Below are positions 22,003 through 46,103 of a stretch of DNA of 64,000 bases, one piece after another. The first letter of the stretch is position 1. Each line of letters starts with the position of its first letter. The position numbers and the translations under genes are program-made. Source of the DNA: Strigops habroptila (lineage: Eukaryota; Chordata; Aves; Psittaciformes; Psittacidae); the NCBI RefSeq assembly GCF_004027225.2, contig NC_046360.1, forward strand, positions 2,964,001 through 3,028,000, given 5' to 3'. The notes below the pieces were generated by a model that searched no databases, was not told the origin of the DNA, and saw only the letters and a program-made list of their open reading frames with translations.

Positions 22003-25000
22003 CTACTGGCCAAAGAGATCATTTGGGTCCTGGAGGGAGCTGTAGCTGTGGCTGTCAGCATACTCCTCCCATTGAATGGGTTTGTTCACAGCAGCAGGAA
22101 CCCCCCAAAGCCAAGAAGGAAGGATTTGACAGGGACAGAGCTGTCGTCTACAGCTCTCAGAAGGCAACTGCCAAGGACTGCAACCCAAAAAAGAGGTGCA
22201 GTGGGAACATGACAAGTTCTTGAACATACGTTTCCCTCTCCAAGAGTGGTTGCCCAGGAAACATGACAATATTTGTTTCTAGTGCTCCTCCCCGCAACAG
22301 CTTTGAGGTAAAAATTAGCTTCTGTAACAAAGACAAAGTTTCCTCAGCGCAGTGGCTCAAAATCCCTGTTTGATGTGGGCTTTCTACATCCTGTTTCACA
22401 GTCTCTCCAGGCTGAGGAGGAAGCAACTTTGCCTTCACTGACACTCACCAGTTCATAATCCTCCACGTATTTGTATTTCTTCTCCCGATAGTAGTATTTC
22501 TTCTTCATGCAGTACAGAACAACAACGTCACACAGCACCGTTGCCTGGGGGAGAGTCAAAGAGTTTAAAACAACGCTCCTCAGACGCGAGGCACTAACCC
22601 AGCACTGAGCCCAAGAGCAGACAGGGTCACTTACCACGCCAAACAGCGCTAAGCCAGAGCCGATGTTAATCATGGTAGGAATGACATCAAATTTTCCTGC
22701 CTAGAAGATGGTTATAAGGGTGAACTTGCTTTTCAGCATCTCTGAAAGCCCTCACCACAAGATCTCCAGGAATTAGGTCACCCACCTTTCCAAACACTAT
22801 GATATCAAAGCGGATGCCGTAAGCTTTGACAAGTGTCCGTGATTCGGTGCCGTTACTATCCCTGAAGTATTTTGCAAACCTAGAGAAAAGACAGGTCAGA
22901 GCTTAGCTGGAAGTTTTTGGGGTTGTTTATGTGATCATGCAACACTTAGGTGTGTCCCCCATCCCAAGAGGATGGGCTGAACATGGGGCTTGTCTCTGGA
23001 AGCACCAAAACGATGGAGATGTCATGCAGGCAAGCACATATAGGAGAACAGCCCCAAACAGGCGAATTTGAGCCAATAGTTAGCACAAGCCAAATGAGGA
23101 AACGTGCAAAGCACGGGAAGGGGAGAAAGCAGAAGGACAGAGAGGCAGAAACAGCCCCCCATGAGGATCAGCCCCCTCAGCCAGAGGCAAGCAGGAGGCT
23201 GCAGGAGTGCAGGCAGCCACGAGAGGGCAGGGCCGGGAGCAGGCAGCACCGCTCAGCCTGGCACACAAAGGCTGCTCCTTGTCCCGCACAATGTCACTCG
23301 CAGGCAAATAACAGGGAAAGCGGATGAGAATAAGTGAGATCAGACTTACTCCACCGCATGGATGACTAAGCCAGGAGGAAGCAGAGAAGAGGGTGGAAGA
23401 AAAGAGGAAGGATTGGTAAGGGGCTGCACATGGTCTGGAGTTAGCAAGAACACTTCAGAACCCACCCCAGCCCTGGGCTGTGATTTCCTCCAGCCAGTCT
23501 CACCCAACACCCCAGTACCTGCAGGCCTGGCACCTCCCAAACACACATCTGTATGACAGCAGCTTCTCAGTGAACCCATTCACGTTCCACCAAAGAGATC
23601 CCCTGTGCTAACTGAGAGTTTGTGGTTCTAGAAGGAAGCATAGCCCTGAGCCACGTTTCCTTGCAAGTGGAATTACTGCAAGGATCTCAGCAAGTGGCCA
23701 ATCCCTATTATTACAGCTCTGAGTCTGGATGCAACCAGCTGCCCAGCTCTGCACTGGTGGTTGCACTGGAGGTGCTGGACCTATCTGTATTGGCCAGAAT
23801 GTGTTTATGGTGGATGCTCCTGGTGCAGAGCCACTTTCCAGAGGTTGGTTTTTTCCTTGTGCACAGTGAAGGAGACGCTTCAGTCTCCAACCTCCACACC
23901 CCAGCACCCTCAAACCTCCCCGTCAGCACACCCTGCAGCAGTTCTCACATTGCCGTGTCACGGGGGAGGCTGGCCCAAACGGCCATGCAAATGCTGATGC
24001 AAATATGACTCAGACACTGATGCAATCAGTGGAGCTTCACTGACCCTTCCCCTCCACTGCTGTGTGCACACAGTGAGGATCTGACCTACTCTGTGTCCCA
24101 CAGCAGCAGAGAAATTCCCAAGTTTTATAGCAAGTTCAAGGAGTACCTGCAGCTGTAGGAGTGCAGGCAACCCCTAACAGCAGGGGCAGACTGAGCCTCA
24201 GGGACACCAGGTGCCCTCCATAGCCACAGTACCTGAAGTTGTAGCCAGGTGAGACAGTGTGAGCAGAGTCCTTGTTGTCCAGGCGCCGGAAGGAATACTT
24301 TGGCACACAGTGGGATGCAGCTCTGTCAAGGTTGCAGTTCCAGTTGATCTGCAGTGCCATGACTCCACCCTGCCAAGTAAAAGAGAGGAGAAGGTGAGCA
24401 GTCCAAGTGCTTGGCCAGCCCAGCACTAGGCTCTCTGCTGACCAGAACCCTGATCCACTGACCCATGTCCCAGTCAAACACCCTTTCCCCCTGCTGCAGA
24501 AGGGCCTTGCACATAACCCCACCCAAATAAGACAAGGGCAAATATCTGTTAAGTAGAACTCACTTTAGTCCACCTGGCCAGAGGAGCTCTCCATCCTGCA
24601 GCTACTCTGTGCCCTGTGTCTGATGCCACAAGGCAGAGGGGGACAACCACCTACCGCTCCTCTTCTACACAGCTGAGGCCCAAGAAAAGGATTTGCCAAA
24701 TACCTCCACAGCCATTTCCTGGAAGTTCTGCCCTGCAGCTTCAACTATTTTCCCTAATCGAAAGATAGGGCAGAAGGGATCTGTCTGAGAGTCATAGATG
24801 CAGTTCTTGAGGTAGGTGGAGTTGATATCAGGGAGGATGTTTCGCCTACAAGGGAACAGAGAGAGAGATCTGTTGCATCTTCTTCCACTCCTCCAGCTCC
24901 CCTTTACTGTCCAAGAGACCAGACAGTGCAGTGGCCCCCACACTATTTACTTGCTGAAGTTGAACTTGGGATACAAAATGTTGTTCTTCACCAGAATGGT

Positions 25001-27693
25001 GAAGTTCTCAGCTTCTTGCAGCAATGCTGGCCTACAAAACAACAGGAAAAGTAAGTAAGTTTGCATTCTGCTTAGCCTCCTCTCAGGAAGGCCAATGCAG
25101 AGAAGGAGAACAGAGCACTCACTTGGGTACGTGATAATCATTCTCCACAGGGCACCATGCAAAGACTTCACAGGTCTTAATGCTGCTGTTGTACGGTACA
25201 CACTCGCCAGTCTGGATGCCTGGAAAGACATGTGAATGGAGATGCTACCAAGCAAAAATAGAGAGGCAGTAGTTGTCCTGTGATATCTCCTCACTCCATA
25301 AGGTAAAAGCAATCCCCTCAGAAGTGAAGTGCCAGTACCAAGACCCCCACTGCAATTTGTAGTGCAATTTCAGAGAAAGAAGCATCACATCTTTTTTCTG
25401 AGTTAAATCCTCACCTACATGAAGTACTGCTTCATGGACTCAAGGTCTTGAAAAAGCCCTTACACTGTCTGCTAACTCACCAAAGCACACATCTATCCAG
25501 CATCCACCCAACATAAACTAAGCCCATTTGCTCTCCCCCCAGAAGAAAAACCTGAGCTTCCCATTCAGTTCTTTTAGATGTGAGAGAATGAGAACAAGGA
25601 GACTGAAGTGAAATGCTGCTTCCCTCACAGGAGGAAAGACAGCACAGAGGTATCACAGCACACAGAAAGGAGCCCTTGCAGCAGGCTTCTTACCATTGCT
25701 GTGGGTGCTGGCATATCCTGGAACACAGTTGTTCTTCACCTTGCACTCTGTTTTATCATCTGGAAGCTGGAAAGGGACAATAATTACACTAAACTCTACC
25801 AACTCTCTCCCTCACACTCCCACCCAGACAAGGCAGGATATAAGCAGGCCCTGTACCTACCTCTGGGCAGCGGCCTTGGCGCTGGTTCAGTGTGAGTATC
25901 GCATTGGTCATGACAAACACAGTGTTCTCCTCCTGAACATGCAAAACAAGGAGGAAACTTAAGAGTGAGCCTGCAAATAGCATCCAAACGTGCCAAATGG
26001 CTTTGCTGACAGAGCCCCGCAGAGGGGACTTGCTCTGGGCAGTGCTGGTGTAGCACTGAAGGAGCAGATTCCCACATGTATCGCCTGATGCCACTGCCTT
26101 TATGTGGAGGAAGGAGTGTGGGACTAGCAACCCTCTCTGTCCTCCCACTTGGCCCAAACTTCCTCATTCACATGTGAAAACAGTGATCACACAGCTCCTC
26201 AGGGAGTCACAAGGCAGAGGCAGAAATCAAGTTCCAGCTGCAAGCCTGAGCACAACTCCCACTCTTTTTGCAATTATCTATTAGAAATTTGACCAGTCCT
26301 TGTTGGTTTTTCCAGGGAGCGCCACTTCCATTATCTTCAGATCTGCACAACGCAGGATTTGTTGTTTGCTTCTTCTCCACTGACATACAAATATGATCAC
26401 TCAGCCAAAACCTGGCTAAATCTGCCACTTTTACCTGCACTACACCTCATGCAGACAGAGTGACCCCCAACCAGCAGCTTGGCTGTGCCTGCCAACCCTG
26501 AACATATTGCATGTACAGCTCAGATCCGCACACACAGAGTCAATCAGTAACTACAGCAATACCTCCTGTTCAGTTCCGGATCAAGTGACTTGCAGGCTAT
26601 TCCTGGGGTTTCTGCCAACAAGTTAACTTTGAGTTGTTTGCTTTAGAAAGCAGTGAGAAGGAGCACATGTGGTTATTGTTGAAACTCTTTTCCTGAAGCC
26701 TGATTCTCCCTCCTATACAAACGCACAGACACACTTTTCTTGAAACAAGCTTCCCCAGGGCTAGTGGTTCAGGTGCTCCACATGATCTGCAGCAAAGCTG
26801 CTTCATTCTCTCATATCAAGGCCACACTGGAGCCAAAGCTGCTCCAGACCTCGCTGGACTCTGGCAGAGCAATAGCTGCTTGTTAGAAAACCCTCCCTCT
26901 GCATGCGAAAGTGGTTGATACCTGAGGAGGGATGACATAGTCAGCCACATCCCAGACCGTGGCTCCCAAGGCGGATGTGTTTGTCAGCGTTACTCCTTTC
27001 ACCTTTGTGATTACAGAACTGACCACAGAGTCTGTTTCCTGGTAGCCCTTCTCCCACAGAAAGACCCATCTGTAAAAGAAGGATTGCAAGAAAGAAACAA
27101 CAAAAAACAGGTAAACACCATAGACCAGCCCAGGCAGCGGGAATTTCTCCTTTTTTCACATGTCACCTGAAGGGGTCACAAGACAAGCAATCTCCCTTAT
27201 GTTCTTTTTCTTGGCGTGGTTTGGCAGGGTGTAATTACTGCTTTTATGCACACCTCACAGGGTGAATGTTGATCACCCTCTGGGATAGTCTCCACTCCCA
27301 AGTGGAGTCCTGCCTACAGCCGCCCTGAGCAGCTCTATTACCCCAGTTAAACTGTCCCACCCTCTGCTTGTCACCTCTTGGTGTTGGCACCCGTGGCGAG
27401 CTCCAGCCTCCCCTCAGCCCCAAGGCCTGACAGAAACGGGGGTCCCGGCGCTGCAGACGGCTCCCTCCCTCAGCACCGCACCCGGGGGCTCCCAGCGCGG
27501 AGCCGGCCCGGGACCCCTTCCCCACAGCCGGGGCAGGGGGGGGTCAGGCCGGTCCCGCTCACCCGATCACGTAGGCGAGGATGGCGAGCTGCACCGCGCG
27601 GTTGATGAGCCCCACTTTGCGGCTCCGGATCAGCACGATGCGGGGGGTGTCGTACTCGAAGAGGAAGCTGTGGAAAGCGGCGCACGACACCAT
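22003..27693 (-). CDS. P2RX4: P2RX4, P2X purinoceptor 4 (all 12 coding exons)
   Basis: Exons in transcription order: 27693-27563, 27069-26922, 25932-25861, 25766-25694, 25219-25123, 25031-24951, 24845-24704, 24369-24233, 22879-22786, 22700-22635, 22544-22449 and 22029-22003. They total 1164 nt, or 387 residues (human has 388). The product is a trimeric ATP-gated cation channel of plasma membrane and lysosomes. The N-terminal [18 protein letters not shown] and the tail [12 protein letters not shown] identify P2X4 rather than P2X5 or P2X7. ATP-contact residues are all present: K66 and K68 (TKVKG), T185 (AENFT), N292 and R294 (GYNFR), K312. All ten ectodomain cysteines are seen. TM1 is at about 30-50 and TM2 at about 335-358. 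The last exon encodes only DPNDLFGQ; it rests on phase, acceptor and the matching length of human GLASELDQ, so it is slightly less certain than the rest. Confidence 0.95.
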
Positions 27694-28010: not shown

Positions 28011-29990
28011 CCAGGTTTATGGTGGGTCATCCCGAGGAGGATGCTCTCACCCTAGTTGTTAAATCAGGGCGATTTCCCCCCCGTGCTACTCGCTGTTAGC
28101 AAGTTTATGGGGAGTTTTCCACCTCCGCACTGGTCAAACGTGAGTTAGGGATTACCTGGAAGTCTGCTGCTGTCAGCTTTCCGCTGCCTCTGGGCTACCA
28201 ACTCTCACAAAGCAGCTGTATAGATAACCTCAGGCCATCCTAACACCAAGAGGTAACTTCAGGCAGCTCAGAGCAACGACAGAGCAACTGCCTGCAAGAG
28301 GTAGCAGAAGCATAGCTAAGACAGTTATTCTCCCATCCACAATGAGCAAATCCTTTATATTTATCCTCTCACAGAATTAATCTTTGCTATAAAAGCAGAG
28401 ATCTGCACCACCTAATTCTTGTGCCTTCACTGATGGTGAGCTGCCCAACATGGTGCTTATTTTAGAAACATCACCATAACCCTTATAATAGCAGGTAAAT
28501 CATTAGAAAGAGGTGAAGGGAACTGACAGACTGGCAGTGGGAAATCCAGAGAGAATGAAATCATTAAAGAGACTTTAGGTCAGCTACAGGTTAGTAAAAC
28601 CCCCTATTTATTACAAAAACAGTCAAATCTGACAGGACTAAAAAGAAGGGGGGAGAGAAGAAGGAAGAACATATATACATAAATGTGAAAGGAGATTAAA
28701 ATCAGTCTTAAGTGAATATTCAGTGTAAATCTTTCCAAAAGGAGAGTGAGCTTATGTGTCAGAACCAGAATGCATTAATGCCAACTGTAATATTGTCCCA
28801 CTCTAGATATATAAGATGCTGCAATATGAATGTTAATACAATTAATGCATATTACAAGCGAAGATATAAATGCCTTTAGCATAATCTGCCAACAATGTAT
28901 CCTAAAATATATGGGAAATGGAATGGCAAACTGCTGGGTTAGCTCAGAAAGAACAAAGCTTAGATGAAAGGAGGGCAGAATATATACGTTAGAATCCTTC
29001 TCACCTTGTTCCGACAACAATAGAACATGTCCAAGTATAACAAAAAGAACTGAAAAGGTGTTAGAGCACGGATTAATCTACCCCAAATATGGTGCTCCTC
29101 AGCTGCACTCTGGCCTTGCACATCACTGCACAAAGCAGCTCGCACTTAGCTCTTCAGGAGGAGGAGGTGAAGGAGGAAAGGCCTGTTTGAAGCTAAGAGC
29201 AAACAGGCCAAAATCCGACATTACCGTTTCAATGAGTATGAATGAAATGCCCCAAAATAATACATAGAGACGATAAAAGTATTTTTCCTTGTAAAGTCCC
29301 GAGTTCAAGCTTAAAGGAGCAATACCAAAGAACAGCTGGGCCTTCCAGAAAATGCTGCCTGTCACTGAAATCATCTAAAATGAGCCTGTTTAATGTGGAT
29401 GGACCAGGAGGCCTTCAACAGCGAGTTATGAAACTATGTGCTCAGTGGCCTCTTTCGAGAGCATCTTAATCCAAGCTACAGAAAGGTGGTGAGGCTGGGG
29501 GAGAAAGATGCCCAGGACCACGTTTCCAAGCAATCTCTCTTTTGGATTTCCTTCCTCCAGGGGTCATGCTTTGAGATGATTCTTGGCTCCATCTTATTTT
29601 CAGGGTGCTGGTCATCTCCGGACTCAGCTGAGGTTCTGGTGTGCAGTAGTGCAAAGGCAGGAGCCGGGAATCTCCCACTAAAAGGTAGCCCTAAGAACTC
29701 ACCCCAGAGCCTGTATTTCCAAACCATTCACTCACAGAATGAAGCAAAGGCAGAAGAAGAAAGCACTTCAGCTCAAAGTATTTGTTCTATGCTAAGCAGG
29801 AGGCCACTGTGTCTCTCCAAAGACAATATATAAGAATTCAGCTGTACTACAGAATATTTTGGGAAGTCACATGCTTTCTTCTCTTTTTTAAAGATCTATG
29901 AAAGAAAACAAAGGTTAAATGTCCAAAGTCAGTCACAGCATGAGCTCAAGTTGTGCTACATCCTTACTCCATCTTAAAACCAGTATACAA
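28010..29990. other. Intergenic between P2RX4 and P2RX7; two exon-like segments
   Basis: This is A+T-rich DNA with no clear gene. On the minus strand two short splice-bounded segments stand out. 29309-29225 is 85 nt with acceptor ttgctcctttaag and donor gtaatg, and encodes ...YKEKYFYRLYVLFWGISF. 29049-29005 is 45 nt with acceptor acaccttttcag and donor gtgaga, and encodes FFLLYLDMFYCCRNK. They faintly resemble P2X exon 9 and the end of TM2 in exon 11, and they lie where 3' exons of P2RX7 would be expected. No exon 10 or C-terminal exon accompanies them, so I do not annotate them as coding. Confidence 0.3.
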
Positions 29991-29991
29991 C

Positions 29992-30640
29992 CATAGAATC
30001 ATAGAACAGTTTGGGTTGGAAAGGACCTAAAATCACCTAGTTCCAGCTCCCTTACCACAGGCAGGGACACCTTCCACTAGACCAGGTTGCTCCAACCTGG
30101 CCTTCAACACTGCCAGGGATGGGGCAGCCACAGCTTCTCTGGGCACCCTGTGCCAGTGTCTCACCATCCTCACCGTAAAGGATTTTCTTCCTTATATCTA
30201 ATCTAAATCTCCCCTCTCTCAGTTTAAAGCCATTCCACCTTGTCCTGTCCCTACAGGCCCTTGTCCAAAGCCCCTCTCCAGGTTTCCTGGAGCCCCTTTA
30301 GGCACTGGAGCTGCTCTAAGGTGTCCCCTTCAGGAGCCTTCTCTTCTCCAGGCTGCCCCAGCCCAGCTCTCTCAGCCTGGCTCCAGAGCAGAGCTGCTCC
30401 AGCCCTCGCAGCAGCTCCGTGGCCTCCTCTGCACTCACTTCAACAGCTCCACGTCCTTCTTATATTTGGGCGGACACAGTACTCTAGTTGGGGTCTCACC
30501 AGAGCAGAGTAGAGAGGGAGAATCCCCTCCAAGTACTGGCCACACTTCTTTTGGTGCAGCCCAGGACACAGTTGGCTTCCTGGGCTGCAAGCACATGTTG
30601 CCAGGGTCATGTTGAGCTTCTCATGAACCAACAACCCACT
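29992..30640 (-). mobile_element. CR1 LINE, about 650-bp 3' fragment with reverse-transcriptase tail
   Basis: It begins with catagaatcatagaacag and ggttggaaaggacct and runs through characteristic CR1 segments (cagggatggggcagccacag, gtgccagtgtctcaccatcc). Read on the minus strand it still encodes LYSALVRPQLEYCV, the conserved end of the CR1 ORF2 reverse transcriptase. The frame is broken beyond that. It is therefore a 5'-truncated element in minus orientation, lying between P2RX4 and the recognisable P2RX7 exons. Confidence 0.93.
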
Positions 30641-33600
30641 CACTGGCGTGCTTTGGCTCAGATTCTTCATTATCCTGGTTCTCATTGGAGCCACTGGTGC
30701 AGCAGCTGCCAGCATCACAAAATTTCACAGGGTGGCTCTGTGACAACAATTCCCAACATAAATTAAAGAAAAAAGCATTTACTGCTTCATCCAACTGCAG
30801 AGAGAATTTACAACAGTGATCCTCCCCATTGGGTTTCTCATTTGACACAGCACAATAGGGATAATGATGATGGATCAGCAGATCTGGAGGAGGATTGTCT
30901 TTCTGTGTTGCCAGCGCCCACCCTAGCGAAACCGAATCGACACCTCACAAGTTGTTTCAACACCAACGCACTCCCGCTGGCACATAACCCACCACAGGAG
31001 AACAGCAATTTTTAGCTGACTCTAGAAAATACATCCTCTGGCCACAGGGCCTATTTACTTGAGGCAGACAAGAGGAATCTAGTTTTAGCCCTTCAGAATC
31101 CGATGTGGAAATATGAGAGGGTGGTAGAAATCAAATTGGTTTGGACTGATACTCCTCACTTCTCCCTTCTAAAGGGAGGATTCCAAAGGTTAAGCATCTG
31201 TCTTTACCTCAACAATGCTGCCCATATTTCCAGTATCTGGGATAGCAAGGCCATGGGGAGCTGCAGGGACAAGGGAACAGGAAGACATGGTACGGAACTA
31301 CCTGTAGGAGCATGAAGCTGCAGAAAGTTCAATCATAAGTAAAGCAGTTTGAAAACCCCAGCAAGGATACGTGAGGAGCTGGCAGTGACAAAAGTGCCCA
31401 TGTCTGAGGGCTTTAATATCATGTTATCCAAGGCCAACTCTGAACTCCTGAGCACGTTTCAGCATGATGGATATCAGACATTTCCCATTCTTCGATCACT
31501 AGAGAGTGTCAAGAATCCTGTGAGCCTTTACTACCTTCCAGTTTCTTATTCTGTCAAGAACATGACCTGATGCACAGCTCACATCAGCTTATGGATCAAT
31601 AAGCAGTCACAGAGCATGGAACAAAGAAATCCTTTTAAATCCGACAATGAAAAGCTGGCAGCACACACAAAATCATAACATTAAACTGAAAGACATACTA
31701 ATCCACACAATAATACTAATATCCAACCTCTGGTAACAACAACCATATGTCTTCTGCCTCAGACATGCTGTCAGGACTTAAAGTGCTGGGTTGTTCTTGA
31801 CTGGTTTACTTGAGTGATCTCTAAGTCCTGTTCTCCTTCATTTAGAGGAATAATTTAAATGGGAATTTGCTTAGCTGAAGGGACAGAAGGTCAGTTCCAG
31901 GGGCAGCAGATCCTCACAGATCACTCTGTTATTGCCAATCAAAATTTGTTTTATAGTTGGTTGTCTGATCAAGTCCTGAAAGAGTAAACTGTTTAAGAGG
32001 ATATGTCTGGTGTAAATGCCATCAGCTCAGTGCTCTGCCTTCTCCCATCTCCAGGTACTCATTCACATAATAGAGTCATCTAAAGGAAACCACATTTTCC
32101 TCCTTTCCTTTCTCTTCAGGTTCAGTTCCTGCTGCTCTGCTTTGCCATCTTGATGCTAACAAACCAGCCCAGAGCAAGCTTTTACTTGATTCCACCCTCT
32201 CCTGCACATCCTACTGCAAGCTAAGTTTGGCAGACTTTGAGTGCTTTGAATCAGAGTTCCCCAGATCATGCGATCATTTGCTTCCCATTCACTGCGATCT
32301 GATTTGTATTCTCTGAAGGCAGTGAGTCACTCAGAAAACCACACTGTAACGTGTTCTGCTTTCTCCTTGCTTGCACAGACGTGAAATGCCCTTTTCCCTG
32401 TGCTGAACAGTTCCACAGTCTGCGGCCAAGACATGTTTTATGGGCCAACTCTGAGCCTCTGAAGCCTGCAGGACACTTTGGGTTTATTTGAAAGTTCTCC
32501 TAAGTTTCCAGGATCAGAGGTTTTCTCTAGCCTTAAGGGGAGAGGTGATTTCACATCTGCTCTTGGTGGCACAGAAGCCTTCTCCTCTGTACCAGCTTTG
32601 TGCTCAGAACTGACCTGTTAAGTAAGAGCTTTCTTGATCACTGGCTGAAGCTTTGTTCCCTTGCACCTCAAGTGGTTATTTTCTTTTGGAAGGCTAAAGG
32701 CTGTTTCCATTTAAGTCTATCACAAAATTCCCTTTGGAACCGAGATAGAATCAATAGGGCTTCATGCAGCCAGAGGCTATAAGCTGCCTAAAGTAGCTTT
32801 CCCGACTTGCAGGACAGCCAGACTGCAGGGGGAGCAGCATTCTCTACCTGCCCTATTTCTTACTCTCTTTTCTGCTATTGATCTTTGTTAGCCTTAGGAC
32901 ACTGGGCTGGGTGGACCTCTGATATGATAATACTTTACATTCTTACAACATGTCACTGATGTCAAAAGGGTTTTCTTGAAATATATTAACTGTAGGATCA
33001 TTTCTAGCTCTTCCCCCCTCACTCACTTGGGTAGTTCTACTGAAACCAGCAGCTCTGTTTATACAAGTTGGCACACACTAGCTCAGCAGCGTGGCAGGGT
33101 TTGTGCATGATCTCTGCCAAAACATCCATGCTTCTTTTAGATAGTATTATGCTCAATCTATTCACTGCTCCTCAACGTTCATTGTCTTTGCTTTTTATAT
33201 TGCTGCACTGAACTACTCTGCCCCTCTTTTTAATTTCGGAGAGATTAGAGAATGACATTTCCTTGCCAATAAACCCCTTGACTGACAGATAGACAGTCAG
33301 GCCACCAGGATGTGGTCTGGCATCAGGCACACGCCGCCAGCAGCCTGTATTCAGCCAGTGGGCCTGTGCTGCTCACTTCCTGCAGCAGAGATTTCAGCTG
33401 AACTGCAGCAAAACAATCTTTCTGCAGACTGGTATTTTGATGTTTAAAGGATTAAAAAATGTGGGGTAAACCCATTCTTGGCATTTTGACCCCAGTGTTA
33501 ATCTGACACTAAACATCCTCGAAACGACTCCACTGTCTTCTTCCAAAAGCCTTCTCAGAAACTGCTTTGCCTACAAAAATGTTGCTGGCCTCAGCCTCAC

Positions 33601-34650
33601 AACTCTGTCAGGTTGGTTGCCAGGTCAGAGGGAACATCTATTTGTTCTGTGTTTGCACAGCTCCAGCACAGTACAGCTTTGGAACACGCTGGCAGCTCCT
33701 AGACAGTTATGGCACTCATGTTAGCATCACAAATGTATGAAAACCCATAGTGTAATAATAGTCATGCTGTGAGTCAAAAAGAGAGTGCTGTTACACGAGA
33801 GTTTTGACCTAGATCTGAGGGACAACTTCAAACATGCTGATAAGCATTTGATAAATGCTTTGTGTAAAACTATTTACAACTGGAGTCATAGTAAGATTTT
33901 TTTGTCGAAACTTCTCATAAATCTGCTATATGCACATAGACCTGAAAGCTCTGATTTGCTTCTGAGTTAATCATAATTCAGTGAACTGTGGGGTTACCCA
34001 GATGGAAGAAAAACACTTTGTTATTTTATTTGTGTTCATTCCTTTGGGAAACTCACAAGTTTAGGTAGTTTCAAGCCTCAGTTGCCATATGGTGGAACCT
34101 GCTCCAGCTATTCTGTGAATACTTGCTGGAAATTTCTAGGCCTTCCAACACAAAATCTCCTGCAATACAATCATGTTCATTTGCAAAATGACCATGATGA
34201 TACATCTATACAAGTGCAGCAACTGCAGGTTAAGGACATGACTACAAGAGTGAAGAATCAAACATCTTGTCATTCCAAGTCATCCCCATTCCCCACACCT
34301 CATAACACCTTTGCTTCAATATCCTTTAGGATTTAGGATCTGCTTGAGTAGAATCAAAAGATGACCATGAGTGACAGCCTTTTATAGGATCTATTTAAAT
34401 GCACCTTGCTTTATAAAAGGGCCTCTACATGCTACAGTACTGGCAAAATAATACCAACTCTGTCAAAATGGGTCCCATGGGTGAGATGTTAAGCATATTT
34501 AATTCTTAAAAATTGGGGCTACCTTGCTTCTCACACAATCAGTTTCTGAAGCTGGCACAATTCCATTCTCTGGCAGACAGCAAAACGTGCAGGAAGAGCA
34601 TTAAAAACATGTTTTAACACTGAGCATGATAAAAAAGTAGTATCACAGAC
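30641..34650. other. No exon recognised (P2RX7 3' exons expected here)
   Basis: Exon 8 of P2RX7 should begin within a few kb left of 34651. I looked on the minus strand for an acceptor followed by Gly-Gly codons, for the WDCNLD and YSFRRLD motifs, and for an exon end coding GYNFR. I found none. GGTGGAATC after an AG near 32185 is followed at once by a stop codon. Nor do I see the cysteine-rich C-terminal ballast domain of P2X7. The rest is unremarkable A+T-rich sequence. Confidence 0.4.
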
Positions 34651-37600
34651 CTTCACTGCCACCTCAGAGAATTCCTCTTTTGCTTCTTGAAGGGTATCTC
34701 CCAGATGGAAAACCGGACAGAGCGAAGAACTCATCTTGTTGTATGTGCAGGAGGAATTTAAATTTGGTGGAATATTTAGTCTGTGAAGAACACACACAAT
34801 TGTTTAAACTTAAAACCAAGCTGGAGCAACTACAGGTACACGGAAGGGACTTCACACTTACTAGAACCTGTGTAAAATGTGCTCAGTTTGTAAGAATATG
34901 AGCTTTTGATTTTGTAGCTACCAGATCTATATATCCCTCACCGGGATCTAGGAATCAAGATGAATTCTCTCCTCTTTGGATATTATCACCAGCAAAGTTT
35001 TACCTGTGTAAACTGAACACTTTCACCTTATAATTTGAATCACACGTCTGTTGTGCTACATTTTAGTGATTTTACCCTAACATAAACCAGTGTATCTGAG
35101 TGAACAACTCCGGTGTCCAGTGCATGAGAGAAACAGCGTTATTGTGGGAGGCTCTGTTCCCAAGCTCTCCTCATTTCTCTTGGTTCCTGAAGGATTTGTC
35201 ACTCGAGCAGATACAGATCTAAATTCACAACCTTTTTGAGTAAAGAAGGTGCCCATTTATACAATCTGTTTTTTTCCAAGCACAACTACTCACTCTTCAG
35301 AAAACATTGAGGAATGTTTGCACTTACACGGTGTAATTAAAGTTTGGGAAGTGAATGTTGTTCTTTGTTAGCACAATGAAGTCTTCAGAACTCCTCAGAA
35401 CAGCAGTCCTAAAAAAGAAACATCAAATTAACTAACTTTTTTTTTTGAAACTTGAACACATCAGTTAATGTTATGCTACTTTACTATTACCTGGAAAGCT
35501 GTCAGTAGGAGGAATAAGTTACTAAGAATAATACATTGAAATGCAGGGAGTTGGGTGGCTCAGGGGATCAAGAAAGATATAGGTTGTTTTCTTAATTTTA
35601 TAGATTGTTCTCTCTCTATTGCATTTGTTTGTGTAGGCCAAGCCTAACTGGAGTCTCTACATGCAGCTGCAATACAATCTCAGGAGACTTTTCATATAAA
35701 TCTTGCTATAGAATAGTAGTAAGAACCATTTGACAGCTGATGATTTCTTGTACAATGAATTGGCAGTTTCATTGCTGGTCCCCACAGTCAGGTGGTCATT
35801 TTAACCAGAGCTGTCCAGCTACTGACAGTGTAACAATGAACCATGTGCTCAATCCTAAAGGATGTCTCTGGAAGTCAGGTGTCAATCACATCACCAAGGG
35901 TTGTCCTGCCTTCCTAGGAGATACCCACTTGAGGACCTCCCCTGCGGTGGTTTGTGTCACTCAATATGTAAGTGGGATGCAAGCACAATGGAAAGCAGGC
36001 TGCCAGTCTGATCCTTCCTCAGAAGAGTGATTTCTCTGAAGCTAATGTGGCAGGAAAGAAGGAATTTTCCCCACAAGTTGCCAGCTGGGTAACCTGGGCC
36101 TAGACTGTGTGAGACAAGCTCTGCTATATCCAGGACTTGCCAAGGCTATATGAAAGCAAGAGATGCAATTTTTAGCATTGTCTGTCTAGCACAGGGACTA
36201 TGCTGAACTGGAATATTGGCATTGTTCCATTTTAAGAATGAGCCTGGAATATCTTAATTTCCATCAAGACAGCCATTCCAAAGAGGAAACCCAGTCTTCA
36301 AAGCAGTCACCCACTTAAAGGACAGTGCTTCTAACAGGGAGTATTTTTCCTATCATTGTATTTTGAGCAATGCCTCTGCATCAGAGATCTGTGATGACAA
36401 GAAATACATTAGCTGGATGACACGCAGCTTCCATGAGGGACTGCTCATGAGTGTTTTCTAAACCATGTCAATGAATGAGACTTGACTGCAAACCAAATTA
36501 ACATTTGTGGATGACACGCAAGTCACTGATGAGTCTCAGTGTATAACAGTCAAGACATTAATAACATGTTAATTTTTAAAGAACTGAAAATGAATGAACC
36601 TATAATGTGAAACTGACCATAATTCATCTGCTGGGAAACATCTGGAATCTGATCCAAAGCTCTTCTGAAAAAGGTGTTGTAAAGAGCTGTCCTTCAGCCA
36701 GATAATCTGGCCATTGTGCCTGGCCTCAGGCAGAAATGAACAATCAATCTTCTTGCCAACATGCAATGGCTTTGTTCAGCTCCTGCCATAACTAAGGGGA
36801 AGGAAAAGGAGGCCTCCTGTATATAGCTCATGAAACTTACCTTTCAAAGGCATTTGGACAATAAAGACAATCATGGGTGTAACCAAAGCCCAACGTTGCT
36901 ACCTCAGTATCTCAACCAGATGGCAAAGCTTCCTGGGCTCTGACCTTGGTCTTATGTATTGTTCTGGTAGAAAACAAACACTCAACTTTGCTTTTTAGTG
37001 ATTCCTTACTTTTCCTGGCCAATGGAACTTGTGAAGGAACTTCATACATCAGAGGTTTGGATCAAACCTCTCAGCCGTTATTTTTGGTCCCTGGCAGTGA
37101 CTGACTGCTGGCACTTCAGAGGAAGGTCAGGAAACAAGACAGAATGTGTCAAGTGTGCCATGTAATTAAAGGCAAAATTCCCTCTGTAACTTCCACAGCA
37201 GTGAGCCCACACAGTGTGACATTTAAAACTGACTGGCAGTCACTGAAACTTCATAAAAAACCCTAGGATTTCATTAACTCAGGAAGCTCATGCATATCTT
37301 GCCCGGATGCTGTATGAACAATTACAGCCTTCCTGTTGTTGGACAAAGCCTTTTTCAGATCACAACTCTGTCCACAGGAGAAAAGAATGGAAATTCCTCC
37401 AAAGACCTGAAAAAAAGTCAGCAAAAGGAGCTGTAGCAGGCATTGTGGGCTCTGGAAGGGCCCTGGCAGTGGAGAAACTGCTCAGTCTCTGCAGAAAACC
37501 CCAAATTAGGGAAAAGATGGGACATATACATGGAATCATGCTTCTATCTTTTAAAAGGAATGAGTTAATAGAAGTGATAATTGACCTAGTTTCTTGCACA

Positions 37601-39701
37601 CATACTTCAAAGCACCTTCATTTGCTCTCTTAGAGAATAATTTGCATCATTTCAATTGAAATCAAACCTTTTATAGATTTTTTTCATGCTTTGGCTGATA
37701 CAGAATAGAAATAGAACATTTTCATCTTGGAACACTGTAGAGTCATGGGGTTACAAAAAAAAAAATGGTTATGAGGCCCCTGCATCCTATTCTCTAGGTC
37801 ACAGCAGCATTGTTCCATGGAGTCTTTTCCCTGGAGTTTTCTCCAGCTCACTGCTACAGATTGCCAGCACTGAGGTTTTCATCATCTACCTAGAGAGGAT
37901 GGAGAGGCTGTTCTTCAGCCTGACATGGCTCCCCAAACACTAGCTGCAGCACAACGTGCAGACAACCAATCCACCCCTCCTGCTCTGGGAGGAGGAAGCA
38001 ACCTCACTGGGAGAAGTGAACCCACAAAGAACTTCTACACTATAAAGCCTTAAGCCTTGCAGAGAAAACCCCAAGTTAGGGAACTTCTTATTTCTGTCAC
38101 TGATTAAACCTATCTTACATTGATGCATTTTCCTTGACATTTGAATTAATGAGCCAAATGCCTCTAGTGAATTCAAGAGGAGCCTGTGACATCTAAAACT
38201 GTTTCTATGGCAGCTGCATGATGATACAAAGCGTATCAGTGAAGCTATGACTTCACTGCAGAATCATACAGCAGGACAGATTGTTAGAAGTAATTTATTT
38301 AGATATTATGAGTGTTAACAGTATGGCTGGGAAGGAAATAGCTGCTTTACGTACATGAGGTTTATACGTGCCTAGGCAAAGGGATTATCCCAAAATATCA
38401 TGACTTTGTCAAAATAAATCCTTCTTCAGACATGAAAAAAATGCAGATACCTCTTTCACTTACCCAGGGGGGTTTTCCAGGGATTCCACAGGGCACCATG
38501 CCCTGACCTTACAGCTTTTAACAGTATCATTATAATTCACACATCTTCCTGATGGAATTCCTGTAGAGAAACAAGCTCTTATTTAGCAAAGACAAGAACT
38601 TCTCACCAATTAGAGACAGTTTCAATATGTCAGTGGATTCCTCCTCAAATGTAAGACAGGGAGCTTGACATTTCAGATTGTTACAGCTTTCTATAGGAGG
38701 AAGCTGTCAGAAGAACTACCCAAACCATGGTCCTGCCACACCTCATCAATCCTTATTTAGCCATTTGCTTGGGTCAACAGTGCTTGTCATTGTTTGGGCT
38801 GAGGGTGAAGTAATTTCCTTCACAGTTTTATATGAAGTTACATATCTGAGTCTTGGAATAAAGTGAGAAACCAACTGTTTCGGTCAAAAGTTTATGTAAA
38901 TGTGAGTGAATTAAACAAGGATATAAAGGTGGGCAGAAAACCTTAATTCTTCCTGCACTCCTGGAAAGCAACATTTTTTGTGAGTGTTTAGTCTTTAACG
39001 GGGAAAGTGATAATTACATAAAAAAGCAATATAAATATCTCCCCTTCCACACCTATATAAGAAGTCTTACTCAGCTGCAATGTAAAAGTACCAAATAATA
39101 AAAGAAAATAACACTGCAGAGCAAGTATAACCCTTACTAACTATTTGGCTTTTTAGAGATAAAGGCTCAGCTACTGCAAAAAACAGTAAAAAGCCCTTTC
39201 CTTGCCTACAATAATATTCTCCTTTATTATTTATGCCTTTTCCCATTTTTCACACTCTCTTCTGTGCTATGAAGCACAATAAATTTAATAGCGGACTATT
39301 TCATTCTTTGTTTATTAACAGTCCCATACTTTTGCCAGTGAAAGTCAACATCATCAGGAAGGACAAGGCGGCTGCTCCTGCTCTACCTCCCCTGACAGAC
39401 ATTCACGTTCTACCTGGCTCAAACAGGAAAGCAGGAGGAATGGAAGATTTGGCTTTAGCCATTTCTGTATCCAGTGTAATGGAATCACATAGAATAAGAT
39501 AGCGACATGTCAGGAAAGCAACCAGATATATCAAGGGAAGTTGATACTGGACTGACATTAAATTAAGACTTGCCTGCATTGGTGTATTCTGCTGAATCCC
39601 AGATCCTGTCCTCTGTGTAAGCAACTCCTTTTGCACTACTGCAAACTGAGCTGTTAATGTCACCTGTCTCCTGATAGAATCTGCAAGCGATGACAATACA
39701 A
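34651..39701 (-). pseudogene. P2RX7: P2RX7-like gene, incomplete; exons 2, 4, 5, 6, 7 recognised
   Basis: Exons in transcription order: exon 2 39701-39574, exon 4 38703-38607, exon 5 38560-38464, exon 6 35408-35328, exon 7 34780-34651. Exons 5, 6 and 7 show P2X features: [58 protein letters not shown]. Exons 5 (97 nt) and 6 (81 nt) match P2RX4 in length and phase. Exon 7 is 130 nt with compatible phases. Exon 4 begins LPPIESC, as in P2RX4 (LPDDKTEC), but is 24 nt longer. Exon 2 has FYQETGDINSSV and RIWDSAEYT. Similarity is closest to P2X7, and the position between P2RX4 and IFT81 fits. I could not find exons 1, 3, 8 or a C-terminal domain. Exon 2 ends at a GC donor one base out of the expected phase. 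No stop codons occur in exons 4-7. A fast-diverged functional P2RX7 remains possible, so the pseudogene label is tentative. Confidence 0.6.
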
Positions 39702-42700
39702 CTGTCAGACAAAACAGAAAGGACAAGTAAGTCCATAAGGATAAACCAGGTCAGCTTCTTTCTACCATTCTAGGACAAAATATCCTGCAAGATAAAAGTC
39801 AGATGGACATTGTCAAGTAATTGAGAGCCTTTTTATGTGAGACACCTGCATCGCCTGGACCAAAGTCTGCCTTGGTTTCACTTCTGCAACTTTTGGCTTT
39901 GTCAGAAATGAACTGATACATGCAAGAAGACAATTTCTATTTTCCCATCCTAAATGATAAAGGGAACCTGAGGTGACATCCTGGCTCTCCAGATGCCATT
40001 TGTGAAACACCAATTAACTGCAACAGGGCTTGATGTCATGCCAAAGCTTTCACCCACGCTGAGTTGTTACGTACCTAGACTTGGACTCCTGTCCCAAACT
40101 GTAACATCCTCTCCATGGTTTTTTTTTAAGAGAGCTTAAAATACTTAGTCCTTAGCTTTCCAGAGTGACTGGTTTTGTGCCTCATGCTGACTGCTTCAAA
40201 AAACCTTGGCCTAACATTTTTACTTTCCCATGAATTGAATGTGTTAGTAAAAGAAGGAAGGATGCCTCTGTTTTTAAGCTGACAGGAAAGTCACAGAGCT
40301 CATCTAACTCATAAAAGCACTGTCAACTTTGAAAAACTATTGTATGTTCAGAAGATACTTTCTACATTACATAAAAGTGATATAAAAGGTTTGCTTTGAA
40401 AAACAAGCCATAAGAGCTAGCACCATTTCAGTTTGACAACAGACTGTTCTGAAGGGAGATAAAATAGTATCTGGAGAACAGAAACACAAAGCAGCTGATC
40501 AATGTTCCTTTATTTATATCCTCTATTATGATGAGTCTTTTCCTCCTGGAGAACAGTTCTTTGGGATAACCATGTTGTTGGAAACTGGCAGCTCTGAGCA
40601 GCAGTAGGTGGGTATAGTACCTTCGTAAGGCAACTTGAATTTCCTGCAGACTTGATTCTGTGTGAGATTGGGATCAGTGCTCTCAATGTCCTGGCTTGCT
40701 GCCCTCCCATGAGAATGAAACCAACTTCATGAACTTCAGCAGACTTTGTTCAGCAAACACTTATCACTGAGAACAGGCCTAGTTTGGCAGCAAAGAGGAA
40801 AATATGCCCTTTAGAGGCAATCCATTATTGCTTATTCCTAAAACATCTTATTGTTCCTGCAATCTGCTGCAAGGGGTGAGTGGCCATTTCGGCTGACCCT
40901 GAATAGGAGACTCCACAGAGTAGACTCTAATCTCAGAAGCACTGGTGTAAATCTGAGATTATTCCATGGAGTAATTTTGGATTTTCAGACAAGAAACAAA
41001 ACCAGACAGCATGGCAAGAAACAAAACTGCAAGTGTTTTTAGAGGAAGCTTAGTTAACTCTGTCCAAGCAACCCCACCTTGTTAGATAACATCCTACGCC
41101 ATGCTCTTACCACAATGTTCCCACAACCACATCCACCTTCCAGGAATGGTCTAACACCAGATCAATGATCCTGTTTGCTGTCACTAGACTCAAAGTGCTG
41201 AAAGACAAGTTGTAACCAGACAACCCCCAATACAACACACATTTACTCAGGCCTTACGGAATCAGGAACTGCCCAAAGAGCCACATCCTTTGGTTTGTTC
41301 ACAGAGAAGGCACCATCAACAGAGCTGAGTGTTCAGCACTGTTCCTGTCACCTTCCATTGGTGGCACCATCTCTCCTCAGTACTACCAGACTTTCCCAGT
41401 CTGAAGTAACCCTGGGACAACTGTAGAAATGAGGATAAATGGATGGAAGCCAGCATCACGATGATCTCCTCCTAAGGCTGACTCTCCACCACCCAACACT
41501 TTGCACCAGCACAAAGGAGGTGTAATGCACTTCTGGACTGGGAAGATGCGTGCAGCACCCACTTCGCAGGGCTGGCAATGGCCATGCAAGACACACAGCA
41601 ATAGTAAATCAAGCTTCTTGGTCATCAGTGGCCACAGAGATCCCCAGCTTCTTATCTCACATTGCATGGGACACCATGCTATTTGCTCTTAAGTTGGTTT
41701 TGTATCAGGTCATAGGATTACAAGGGAGTGACAAAAGTTACTACTTCTCTCAGCAAAGCCAATGCATGGCACATACTTCGGTTGCAGCCTCTCCAACTCC
41801 ACAGAAGCATACACAAGCCAGAGCTGGTCAGTGTGCTGCAAGCCAACATTTGTATCTGGTCCAGGGGATCAAGGAGCAGGCGTGAGGCCACCATCCAACA
41901 CTGAAACACAGGAGGTGGAGCTGTAAAGATGCAGAGCTGTTAAGGTGGGACCTGTAAATCTCAGGCTCAGAGTCTGGAAGACAAGCATATTAGCTCAGAA
42001 TCCATTAGACCCAGATTAAAAGGACCAGGGTCCTCTGTCTTACAACAGAAGACCCACACAGAGGCCCAAAATATACAAACCCTACAACAAAGAACTAATG
42101 TTTTTCTTCCAATCCTTTAGTATTTTAAATCACCTCGGGTGCTACCTACGGCTGTAGTCATGACAAGACACTCAGAACCAGACAGGCTTCTTGCTGTTGG
42201 TATTGTCTTAAATGCTTTAGCACACAGGAACAAGTTAGATTCTGCACAAACAGGTTTCATTTTGTGAGAAATTGGTGATCATTCCTTAGGCTTTTGCTGA
42301 CCACAGTCCTCACTGCTGGGTTGTATCAGTGCCAGTTCAGCAAGCAAAATCCTGCTACAGAATAAGAACTGAAGAAGCTGCAAGTGAGAACCAGAAACAG
42401 ACCTGGGATGCATTTAGCGGCTGGAAGAGCCACAAAGAAATTGATTTTTAATAGAACAGTCAGACCTACTCTTATATGTACATACACATAGCACTACTTA
42501 TAATAAGAGAGACAAACAGGAGGGATCAGATTGCATAAGAAAAGCAGGAATAAGTGTTGTCTTCTCTTCCTAAATGCTCTTGTTTTCACATTAACATCTT
42601 CCCTCTGTCTGGGATCCGACCTCAGCAGCTCGGCCGGACGTATTCCTCTTCTTGCCTGTGATGTTCCCATATAAGGTGATCTCTCTTTGCCCATGGAGCA

Positions 42701-45390
42701 CGATTTGGATTTGCTCAGGTTTCGTTCCACTCTGATTTGCTGCCTCTATGGCCGAGCTGTCTCAGTTTTGCAAGGCACTCATCCACACAGCAGTAGCTAT
42801 AAAGGGAGGAGAAAGTCAGGAGGGAGCAATGAAGCCAGGCCTGCAGATCTAAAGAGCTCCGGATAGTTTATTTGCAGGCTCCATTCTCTTTCTTCCACAC
42901 GTTGCCTCTGCACGATGCCTTTTCAATAAGCAGCTTCCATAAGCCTTTCCCAAACAACAGAAAACATAAGCCCTATCCAGACAATTGGATGGAACTCTAG
43001 GGCTGAACTGTGATAATAAGTCTCATGTCATCAGGAAACTGCTTGAAATCCTGTATCACTCTCCATGCAAACTAACTTGGGAATTTGGAAAAATACACAA
43101 CAAATATATATGAACACTTCGACTCTGCAAGACTTGACCCAGATACAGCATCACCCCAACTAAGATAACTTAAGACCAGTTAAGCATCAAACAAATACCT
43201 CAGCTGCTTCCTGTAATATTTACCCAGGGCTGCACTGAAAGCTGTCATCTCTTTCCTGCCTGTGAAAATTCTGTTGTGATACAGAGGTCAAGGTGCTGAG
43301 CTAAGCCGTCATTTTCTTTTTAAGCAGTATGAAAACCCAGACACCACTAAAGATTGTAAGTATCGAGCAGCAGGCAGGCAGCCTGGGGTAGCAGTGTGTC
43401 TACTTTGAGTAGCACAAACTGTTAAAGGAAAGGATCATGAAAACATACAACTTTAAGGACAACACAGGATCCCTGACACTTTCCCCAAGTTGGGAAGTCC
43501 CATAGACCTGGCCTCCAACACATGGTTTTGCTCCTGCTTTCAAACAGGCCAGCAAGCCAGAGCTCAGGCAGTCCAGTTCTAATGATGTTTGGTCACAGAA
43601 GTCTCCTTCCCCAAGAGTCAGAACAATCAGATTTGGCTTTCCACCATGACAAAGTTAAACAATTTCACCATCATTTTTATTTCTTATCTTGGTGTTTTCT
43701 AAAGTTTTCAGACATCCTTCTTCTTCTTTATCTGTTGCCTCTTTAATGTTACAGAGACATGAGAAGAGGGGAACAGTCCTTTGCTTCCTGGAAGGACTGA
43801 AATAGTCTGATGTAAAGGAGACTCTTAGAGGAGCACCCTCCCAGTGCACCCAGCATAGATCCCTCTTCATCCTCAGCACTGCAGGCACAACTGCTCTCTA
43901 CTCTGCACCCAAGCCTGAAGAAAGGATGTGTATCAGTATCTACACAAACTGTGTTTCTCCAGCATAAAGTGGTGGACCCGCATCATCCACTTCCTATTAC
44001 CTATTAAAGCAGACCTGCCCCAGAGCCTCCACAAGAAACAAAATCATTTTCATTTCTCCCTATGTGTATTCTTTACGCTCAAAATACTCATCAGAAGAAA
44101 AGTGTAATTGATACCTGGAAAACATGTCAAAGGAAAGCAGATCTCTTCTGGGAACTTGTAGGTAAATACGATTCCTAAAGGTCAGGATACAGCGCGAAAG
44201 CACAAAGGAAACATGATCTGGTTTTAAAGTTCAAATGCAGGAGTCAGGAGACTTGGATTATGTTCCTGGCTCTACCACAGCTTTCACGCACAATCACAAG
44301 CAACCCATCCATCCCCTCTGTAATTTAGTTTAGCCAGTTAAAGGCTAGGACCCCGATGCAGTGTCACTTTTCAGGCTCCCCATTAAAACCTGTAAATCAG
44401 TACTTTGTGAAGCATTTTCTGTTCCTCAGAAGGAAAAAAAAAAAAGGAGCTAACCTAAGATAGACGCAGTGCTTAGAATTGCAAAGTATTACATTTATGA
44501 TTGCTATTTACTGAGTCAAATTCTGCAGTGATTTACAACCTGTGCATTTCAATTGGCACCAATTTAATGTGACTCACTGCATATTTTAATCCATCATCTG
44601 TGGAATCACATGGGATTCTGAGACTATCCAAGAAGCTAATTGCAATAGCAAAGGCTCCAAAATCCACCTATTTAAGGTCTAAGCACGAGTTTTGAAGAAT
44701 CTGGAACAGAAAACTTGCAGATTGAGAGATACCCATTTCATAAACAACTTTGACTTTAATATATAATCTATTTTTGATTGTTTGGTATGTTGGAAGCTCC
44801 TGTCCCTGTTTCAGATTTAGCATAGCTAGCACTACATATTTATTGCTACTTTGAGGCACACTGACAACTGATGTTCAACCCTGAAGACATAAATTTGCCA
44901 TTTGCCCCTGATGAAGCTTGGGCACAGGACTGGCATTCTCTGAACATTTTCCCATTTCAAAGGAATGAAGTAACCATTCACCTGATAGATTTATCAGCCA
45001 CACTTGACATCTCTTTCTGCTGTCAAAGACTGCCAGAAGTCTTAATTGGGTAACTGCATCAAGCTGTTTGTACATCTCCTACACACGCGACAACAGCCTC
45101 CCTCTGAAGAAACCGCAGAGCTAAGTATATACTTTAGAGGGTGAATCTCAACCTATTTCTGCTGTTCCTTGCATCAAGAGCACTTGTGCTGTTAAGAAGC
45201 CCCACAAGATACTTGGCCCATGGAGCGTACACCCCAGCATCACCCACAGCCACGCTTCCACACAGCATGGACAGCACCCCTATGTCTGAGAACGGCGCTG
45301 GGGCTACACCTCATAGCACAGGCAGCGCATCTGCCTTTTGGTCTGGAGATGAGGTGAAAACCCCAATTCCTGCCTAATTCAGGGCGGGAA
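39702..45390. other. Region upstream of P2RX7 exon 2; no gene recognised
   Basis: P2RX7 exon 1, which would encode the N-terminus and TM1, should lie here on the minus strand, but I could not recognise it. Short open frames on both strands lack similarity and splice support. A minus-strand segment near 40081-40125 reads VTVWD before a gtacgt donor, resembling the end of P2X exon 2, but nothing upstream of it continues the match. I see no RNA genes and no clear transposon. Confidence 0.4.
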
Positions 45391-45580
45391 ACGCGTGTGT
45401 TGAGGCGGGGGCTGAGCTTCCCAGAGCCCCACCGGGCTGGCACAAGCGGTGCAGCCGGGACGCCTCACAGCGCGGCCTGCTCCGCCTTACCTCCCCTCAG
45501 GCGGCAGGGGGCTGCGAGGAACAGTGAAACAAGCGAGGAGAAGGGGAGGAGAACGCGAGGACCCGCCCTCCACCGGCAAT

Positions 45581-45646
45581 GTCCGGTCCGGACCAGTCCG
45601 GTCCGACCGGGCCCGGCTCATCCCGGCTCATCCCGGCCCATCCCGC
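45581..45646. repeat. Short tandem repeats in the IFT81 CpG island
   Basis: Copies of gtccg and its complement cggac give a locally self-complementary block (45581-45610). It is followed by about 3.5 copies of a 10-base unit, cccggctcat, at 45612-45646. It lies about 175-240 bases upstream of the X-box. Confidence 0.75.
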
Positions 45647-45820
45647 CGGGGCGGCCGCGCCTCACCACAGCCCGGCCCCGCCCTGCCGCGCCCCGCCGCT
45701 CTGCGCATGCGCCGACACCCCCTCGCTCTTCCCCCCCTCCCGTCCCCTGCATTTTCCCGCCGCTCTAGCGCGTTGGCAGAAGCACGCCGGAAGTGACGCC
45801 ATTGCTCTGGCCTGGCAACC

Positions 45821-45834
45821 GTTACCAAGGTAAC
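45821..45834. promoter_or_regulatory. X-box (RFX-factor binding site) for IFT81
   Basis: The sequence gttaccaaggtaac is a perfect inverted repeat of GTTACC with a 2-base spacer, matching the X-box consensus GTTRCC-N(0-3)-RGYAAC bound by RFX2/RFX3. RFX factors activate intraflagellar transport genes, and IFT81 is the gene immediately downstream. A further half-site, ggcaac, precedes it at 45814-45819. Confidence 0.85.
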
Positions 45835-46103
45835 CGCAGGACGAGGCCGCGGCCGCCCCGGTACCTCAGGGCGCTGCCGCTGGAGCCGCGGCCCCGCTGA
45901 CCCCCCCGTGAGCCGCGGTGAGGGGCGTGGACCGTCCTTCGAAGGCCGTAGAGGGGCTGAGGGAGCGGCTGGGCCGTGCTCCGCCGAGCCTGGTGCCAGC
46001 TCACCGCCTGCGGGCCTCGCTGAGGCGGTGCGTTCACCCGGCAGCGCCTCGCCGAGGCCTCTGGAGAGCTCGTCTGCGGAGGTTTTTGTTCCAGGACACG
46101 ATA

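What the first reader, a model, noticed from the sequence alone, without database searches (positions are those of the whole stretch)
34651..39701. P2RX7 appears incomplete or decaying
Exons 2, 4, 5, 6 and 7 can be placed with splice sites and, for 4-7, compatible phases. Exons 1, 3 and 8, TM2 and the large C-terminal ballast could not be found between P2RX4 and IFT81. Exons 4-7 (405 nt) carry no stop codon, so any loss is recent or the gene is a fast-evolving functional form. Loss or strong remodelling of P2X7 would alter ATP-driven inflammasome signalling in this bird.
Basis: partly seen in the sequence, partly recalled or inferred. Interest (0 to 1): 0.72.

Follow-up and report, generated by a model that had tools for sequence, protein, structure and literature searches.

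The report
Broken remnant of the P2RX7 gene
In this bird the gene for P2X7, an ATP-gated channel that alerts the immune system, is reduced to a few leftover exons between its usual neighbours, so the bird probably has no working P2X7.

Summary
The finding holds, with one correction. Between P2RX4 and IFT81, minus strand, lies a P2RX7 remnant. Exons 2, 5, 6 and 7 are certain; exons 5-7 are 65% identical to chicken P2X7. Exons 1, 3 and 8-11 and the C-terminal ballast were not found in the window.

Nor were exons 8-11 and the ballast found elsewhere in the assembly (1.149 Gb, 89 contigs): chicken exons 8-11 give 9 matches, all in the five other P2X genes, and the ballast family gives none over its cut-off. 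The same local profile found exons 1, 2, 3 and 5-9 in 5 of 5 other P2X genes.

Exon 2 also ends in the wrong phase, and a threonine that contacts ATP in chicken P2X7 is isoleucine. Exons 5-7 have no stop or indel and keep splice sites, which points to recent inactivation.

Most likely a recent unitary pseudogene made by local deletion. No other bird genome, RNA or second individual could be examined, so lineage spread, age and fixation are open.

The parts
39574..39701 (-). P2RX7 remnant exon 2 (end of TM1 and first ectodomain stretch), GC donor, ends in phase 1 instead of 0
   Evidence: 16.1 bits; 0 of 60 shuffles reach it; phase and donors
38704..39573 (-). Interval where exon 3 should lie; none recognised
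   Evidence: Frameshift-tolerant search: 46 of 60 shuffles reach the best score; profile scan
38607..38703 (-).
   Evidence: No gain in profile score, 150 of 200 shuffles as good; Pfam alignment reaches into it
38464..38560 (-). P2RX7 remnant exon 5
   Evidence: 40.1 bits
35328..35408 (-). P2RX7 remnant exon 6, carries T189I
   Evidence: 34.6 bits
34651..34780 (-). P2RX7 remnant exon 7, last exon found
   Evidence: 46.3 bits
27694..34650 (-). Interval between exon 7 and the P2RX4 start codon where exons 8-13 should lie; none recognised
39702..46103 (-). Interval between exon 2 and IFT81 where exon 1 should lie; none recognised
22434..27693 (-). P2RX4, neighbour and internal control
   Evidence: Human P2X4 residues 5-385 covered by matches; exon phases

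Best explanation
The locus is a unitary pseudogene of P2RX7. The gene once stood complete between IFT81 and P2RX4 and lost its 3' half (exons 8-13: TM2 and the ballast), most simply by a local deletion, while P2RX4 kept its place about 7 kb downstream. Exons 1 and 3 are also not recognisable, exon 2 no longer joins in frame, and a residue of the ATP pocket has changed. What remains cannot encode an ATP-gated channel. Shown: which exons are recognisable and which are not, the exon 2 phase break, and the failure to find exons 8-11 and the ballast elsewhere in this assembly. Inferred: deletion as mechanism, recent age, and loss of P2X7 function (ATP-driven K+ efflux and IL-1 release) in the animal.
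For: Orthology: exons 5-7 match PDB 5xw6 best of 35 sequences (147.8 bits; human P2X4 9bqh 90.5; [quoted passage not shown] Loss: the profile scan finds only exons 2, 5, 6, 7. Controls: exons 1, 2, 3, 5, 6, 7, 8, 9 found in 5 of 5 other P2X genes of this genome. Genome-wide: chicken exons 8-11 give 9 matches, all in the other five P2X genes; ballast PF20478 best 19.6 bits, cut-off 23.5, none of 8 on C11. No N in the window. Exon 2 phase break. Of 52 positions invariant in chicken and four mammals 12 changed here, T189I among them; mirror count for chicken 6 of 46. By alignment T189 is chicken Thr177, which contacts adenine (PMC5638823, passages).
Against: Exons 5-7 have no stop or indel and keep 5 of 5 conserved cysteines, as a working gene would. 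The faster rate is not significant (window-unique 13 against chicken-unique 7 with human as outgroup; chi2 1.32-3.20 over four outgroups). A neutral-replacement test was inconclusive. Power falls with decay: at 0.2 substitutions per site the profile still finds exon 8 in 34 of 60 simulations, but exon 3 in only 20 and exon 10 in 10 of 60. Genome searches score only candidates of a loose first look. No bird ballast was on hand as a positive control. One assembly of one individual.
Confidence: 0.87

Rival explanations
1. Assembly or haplotype artefact: exons 1, 3 and 8-13 exist in the animal but dropped out of, or differ from, the assembled haplotype.
For: Bird assemblies can lose genes (general knowledge); one individual only; exons 5-7 look like part of a working gene.
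Against: No N in the window; both neighbours join the remnant without a gap; base composition of 28-40 kb is ordinary, 39-47% GC; exons 8-11 and ballast are on no other contig that the searches could show; the exon 2 phase break is a separate defect.
Confidence: 0.08
2. A functional but strongly remodelled, fast-evolving P2X7 whose missing exons have diverged beyond recognition.
For: Exons 5-7 open with splice sites kept; P2RX7 had a global omega of 0.71 in a set of bird bone genes (PMC4870793, passages).
Against: Exons 8 and 9 are found in 5 of 5 other P2X genes by the same profile, so they would have to be less conserved than paralogues; exon 2 phase break; T189I; no ballast match over cut-off.
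Confidence: 0.02
3. The surviving exons are still transcribed and spliced, as a truncated ectodomain or as the 5' part of a P2RX7-P2RX4 fusion (exon 7 to P2RX4 exon 8, both phase 0).
For: Exon 7 ends and P2RX4 exon 8 begins in phase 0, same strand, about 10 kb apart; exons 5-7 have no stop or indel.
Against: No exon 1 or 3 recognised and exon 2 ends out of phase; no RNA evidence available.
Confidence: 0.03

Closest known systems
P2RX7 (P2X purinoceptor 7), chicken ortholog crystallised as 5xw6
   Same: Exons 5-7 are 65% identical (67 of 103 residues); lies beside P2RX4; exon phases 4/5 to 7/8 as in P2RX4
   Different: Exons 1, 3, 8-11 and ballast not found; exon 2 out of phase; the residue aligned with chicken Thr177 (human T189) is Ile
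P2RX4 of the same window
   Same: Paralogue with the same exon plan
   Different: P2RX4 covers human residues 5-385 of 388; the remnant scores higher with P2X7 than with P2X4 (115.9 against 104.7 bits with the human proteins)
Unitary pseudogenes (single-copy gene lost in place)
   Same: Ortholog at its syntenic place, introns kept, disabled, no working copy found elsewhere
   Different: Surviving exons 5-7 are unusually clean, which suggests recent loss

Membership tests
Functional P2X7 receptor | Ectodomain of the P2X fold with conserved cysteines | tested here: inconclusive
   The joined exon 4-7 stretch matches PF00864 at 109.4 bits and keeps 5 of 5 cysteines conserved in exons 5-7; the rest of the ectodomain is missing or unrecognised
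Functional P2X7 receptor | Two membrane helices (TM1 in exons 1-2, TM2 in exons 10-11; exon numbers of the helices recalled) | tested here: not met
   No exon 1 and no TM2 exon stood out in the window; chicken exons 8-11 match only the other five P2X genes
Functional P2X7 receptor | C-terminal ballast (PF20478) | tested here: not met
   8 matches at E up to 10, best 19.6 bits against a cut-off of 23.5; human P2X7 scores 267 as a whole protein; no bird ballast available as control
Functional P2X7 receptor | ATP-contacting residues | tested here: not met
   Residue aligned with human T189 / chicken T177 is Ile; adenine contact from PMC5638823 (passages); contacts encoded by exons 8-9 (recalled) are missing
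Unitary pseudogene of P2RX7 | Ortholog at the syntenic place | tested here: met
   Next to P2RX4 on the same strand, flanked by CAMKK2 and IFT81; P2X7-P2X4 linkage from PMC7016195
Unitary pseudogene of P2RX7 | Disabled coding sequence | tested here: met
   Exons not found, exon 2 phase break
Unitary pseudogene of P2RX7 | No functional copy elsewhere in the genome | tested here: met
   Searches show six P2X loci, one of them the P2RX7 remnant; limited to this assembly and to first-look candidates
Unitary pseudogene of P2RX7 | Fixed in the species and not expressed | not testable with these tools
   No population or RNA data
Processed pseudogene | Introns absent | tested here: not met
   Remnant exons are separated by introns with splice signals

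The most novel reading that the evidence does not exclude
The surviving P2RX7 exons are still spliced, as the 5' part of a P2RX7-P2RX4 fusion transcript (exon 7 to P2RX4 exon 8, both phase 0), giving a hybrid P2X ectodomain with a P2X4 pore and no ballast; this would explain why exons 5-7 stay open.
Probability: 0.03. Interest if true: 0.75.

Novelty: new member of a known kind. Interest (0 to 1): 0.52.

Why it matters
P2X7 links extracellular ATP to K+ efflux and IL-1 release in mammals (general knowledge), and chicken P2X7 is a working ATP-gated channel (PMC5638823, passages). A bird without it would be a natural knock-out: it shows the gene can be dispensed with and gives a testable contrast with chicken for ATP responses of macrophages and bone cells. 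It may also bear on the report of the highest global omega, 0.71, for P2RX7 among bird bone genes (PMC4870793, passages): if copies from birds with decaying genes entered such alignments, relaxed constraint could pass for positive selection. That is a suggestion, not shown; the paper mentions aberrant sequences with frame shifts in a sentence cut off in what I saw.

Tried and rejected
Exon 4 is a weak exon, found in 2 of 5 control genes, so its absence is not claimed either.

Two weak matches among the 15 interval tests: an exon-1-like text at 43381-43349 (2 of 40 shuffles reach it; the frames there show no TM1) and an 11-residue exon 11 text near 33649 (1 of 40). Not accepted.

Neutral-replacement test: of 36 differences from chicken, 14 were assigned to the window branch, 6 to chicken, 16 to neither; the 14 cost about as much score as random changes (639 of 1000 simulations score as well or better). 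Counting only changes away from mammals biases this test, so it is not used as evidence.

The simulated power for the ballast is circular (human ballast against a profile holding human P2X7), and the profile used on the window has 391 positions and so hardly covers the ballast; the ballast claim rests.

Repeats at the deletion edges: no direct repeat of 25 nt or more and one 80% inverted pair in 27700-46000; no breakpoint could be placed. No bird nucleotide sequence other than this genome was available, so no dN/dS.

Papers: ten searches. In the listings I saw no report of P2RX7 loss in a bird; I looked at passages of four papers (PMC7016195, PMC4870793, PMC6356682, PMC5638823) and opened no others. 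Papers outside this open library were not searched.

Full report
What the window is. The window lies at C11:2964001-3028000 of an assembly of 1,148,577,936 bases in 89 contigs; contigs C4, C11 and C14 are 86.5, 39.2 and 12.2 Mb long. The window has no N. tblastn with recalled human proteins places CAMKK2 on the plus strand (about 8.5-17.0 kb), P2RX4 on the minus strand (27693 down to 22434, human residues 5-385 of 388 covered) and IFT81 on the plus strand from 46104. The P2RX4 junctions 1/2 to 7/8 have phases 2, 0, 0, 1, 2, 2, 0, as I read them from the sequences.

What is left of P2RX7. Human P2X7, chicken P2X7 taken from PDB chain 5xw6 and a six-sequence P2X profile agree on four blocks between 39701 and 34651: exons 2, 5, 6 and 7, at 16.1, 40.1, 34.6 and 46.3 bits; the best unrelated block in the window scores 4.9. 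Boundaries, lengths (128, 97, 81 and 130 nt) and splice signals are. Exons 5-7 give an open 103-residue stretch, 65.0% identical to chicken and 49.5-55.3% to four mammals; chicken is 54.4-62.1% identical to the same mammals. Of 35 distinct PDB sequences matched, 5xw6 is best at 147.8 bits, five mammalian P2X7 sequences follow at 119.3-111.6, and the first chain named P2X4 scores 90.5 (one residue of that query at the exon 5/6 joint was wrong). That 5xw6 is the chicken structure of PMC5638823 is recalled; the passages I saw of that paper fit it.

The Pfam alignment of the joined stretch does start at its residue 7. Exon 4 is poorly conserved, found in only 2 of 5 control genes, so it is neither proved nor excluded.

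What is missing. Frameshift-tolerant searches of the intervals gave nothing above shuffled controls for exon 3 (46 of 60 shuffles reach the best score), exon 4 (18 of 60), exon 8 (11 of 40 with chicken, 31 of 40 with human), exon 9 (40 of 40; 26 of 40), exon 10 (15 of 40) or two ballast stretches (38 of 40; 10 of 40); two short texts came near the edge of the controls (exon 1, 2 of 40; an 11-residue exon 11 text, 1 of 40) and lead to no exon. Sensitivity was checked in two ways. First, the same profile finds exons 1, 2, 3, 5, 6, 7, 8 and 9 in P2RX4 and in 4 of 4 other P2X loci fetched from this genome; these are paralogues, so harder targets than a P2X7 ortholog should be. Second, with chicken left out of the profile, test exons decayed by 0.1 substitutions per site plus indels are found in 58 of 60 simulations for exon 8, 49 for exon 9, 44 for exon 3, 43 for exon 1 and 40 for exon 10; at 0.2 in 34, 24, 20, 19 and 10 of 60 (exon 1 was taken from P2RX4 of this window). 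A single short exon could therefore be missed after heavy decay; but exons 5-7 have decayed little, and exons 8-10 of the same gene should be about as recognisable if they were there (inference).

Genome-wide. PF00864 gives 31 matches in six loci. By best match to recalled human P2X1-P2X7 the four loci away from the window are P2RX3 (C4), P2RX6 (C11, 15.08 Mb), P2RX1 and P2RX5 (C14). Exon 8 appears five times, once for each of the five other genes, and not for P2RX7. Chicken exons 8-11 give 9 matches at E up to 10, all in those five genes. The full chicken chain gives 26 matches at E up to 10: 25 in the six loci, including all four remnant exons, and one weak match on C20 (E 1.38, 24% identity, not looked at further). 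The ballast family PF20478 gives 8 matches at E up to 10, the best 19.6 bits against a cut-off of 23.5, none on C11. These searches score only candidates of a loose first look, and no bird ballast was on hand as a positive control; human P2X7 scores 267 bits as a whole protein.

Independent signs of disablement. Exon 2 ends with CAG/gcaagt in phase 1 while P2RX4 ends exon 2 in phase 0; of nine GT sites scanned the only open phase-0 one would shorten the exon to 76 nt. Of 52 positions identical in chicken and four mammals, 12 differ here, among them T189I; the mirror count for chicken is 6 of 46. Chicken Thr177, which aligns with human T189, contacts adenine (PMC5638823, passages). The relative-rate difference is not significant for any of four outgroups (chi2 1.32-3.20), and a neutral-replacement test was inconclusive.

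Age. In neutral simulations of exons 5-7 (309 nt with the completing base), the chance of neither stop nor indel is 0.32, 0.15 and 0.07 at 0.05 substitutions per site and 0.17, 0.05 and 0.01 at 0.08, for indel-to-substitution ratios of 0.05, 0.10 and 0.15. So the gene was probably disabled recently on the scale of bird evolution, or the exons are still under some constraint. This is a loose bound from one sequence, not a date.

Reading. The simplest account is a unitary pseudogene. The remnant still stands beside P2RX4, so loss of exons 8-13 was local, most simply a deletion within what are now the 7 kb between exon 7 and the P2RX4 start codon. No repeat marks the edges. The order of events (exon 1, exon 2, exon 3, 3' half) cannot be told. 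Loss of P2X7 function in the animal follows from lack of TM2 and ballast and has not been measured.

Literature. [quoted passage not shown] the figure legend I saw uses chicken as its bird. PMC4870793 (passages) reports an omega of 0.71 for P2RX7 in birds. PMC5638823 (passages) shows that chicken P2X7 is ATP-gated. In the listings of ten searches I saw no report of P2RX7 loss in a bird; most of the listed papers were not opened.

Noticed in passing
Whole assembly G000: No separate P2RX2 locus: 27 of 27 matches of recalled human P2X2 at E up to 1 fall in the P2RX1, 3, 4, 5 and 6 loci. Two of the seven vertebrate P2X genes may be missing in this bird; P2RX2 may instead have dropped out of the assembly.
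   Followed up: partly
30040-30560: Sequence that looks like the 3' part of a CR1 element (recalled pattern, no library search) inside the interval where exons 8-13 should lie.
   Followed up: no
Whole assembly G000: Size (1.149 Gb) and 89 contigs resemble what I recall of the kakapo reference assembly, and contig C11 (39 Mb) is far larger than I recall for chicken chromosome 15. Species not established; one paper search for that assembly name found nothing.
   Followed up: partly
39574 (exon 2 donor): GC-type donor (CAG/gcaagt) on a remnant exon; whether ancestral or new cannot be told without another bird.
   Followed up: no
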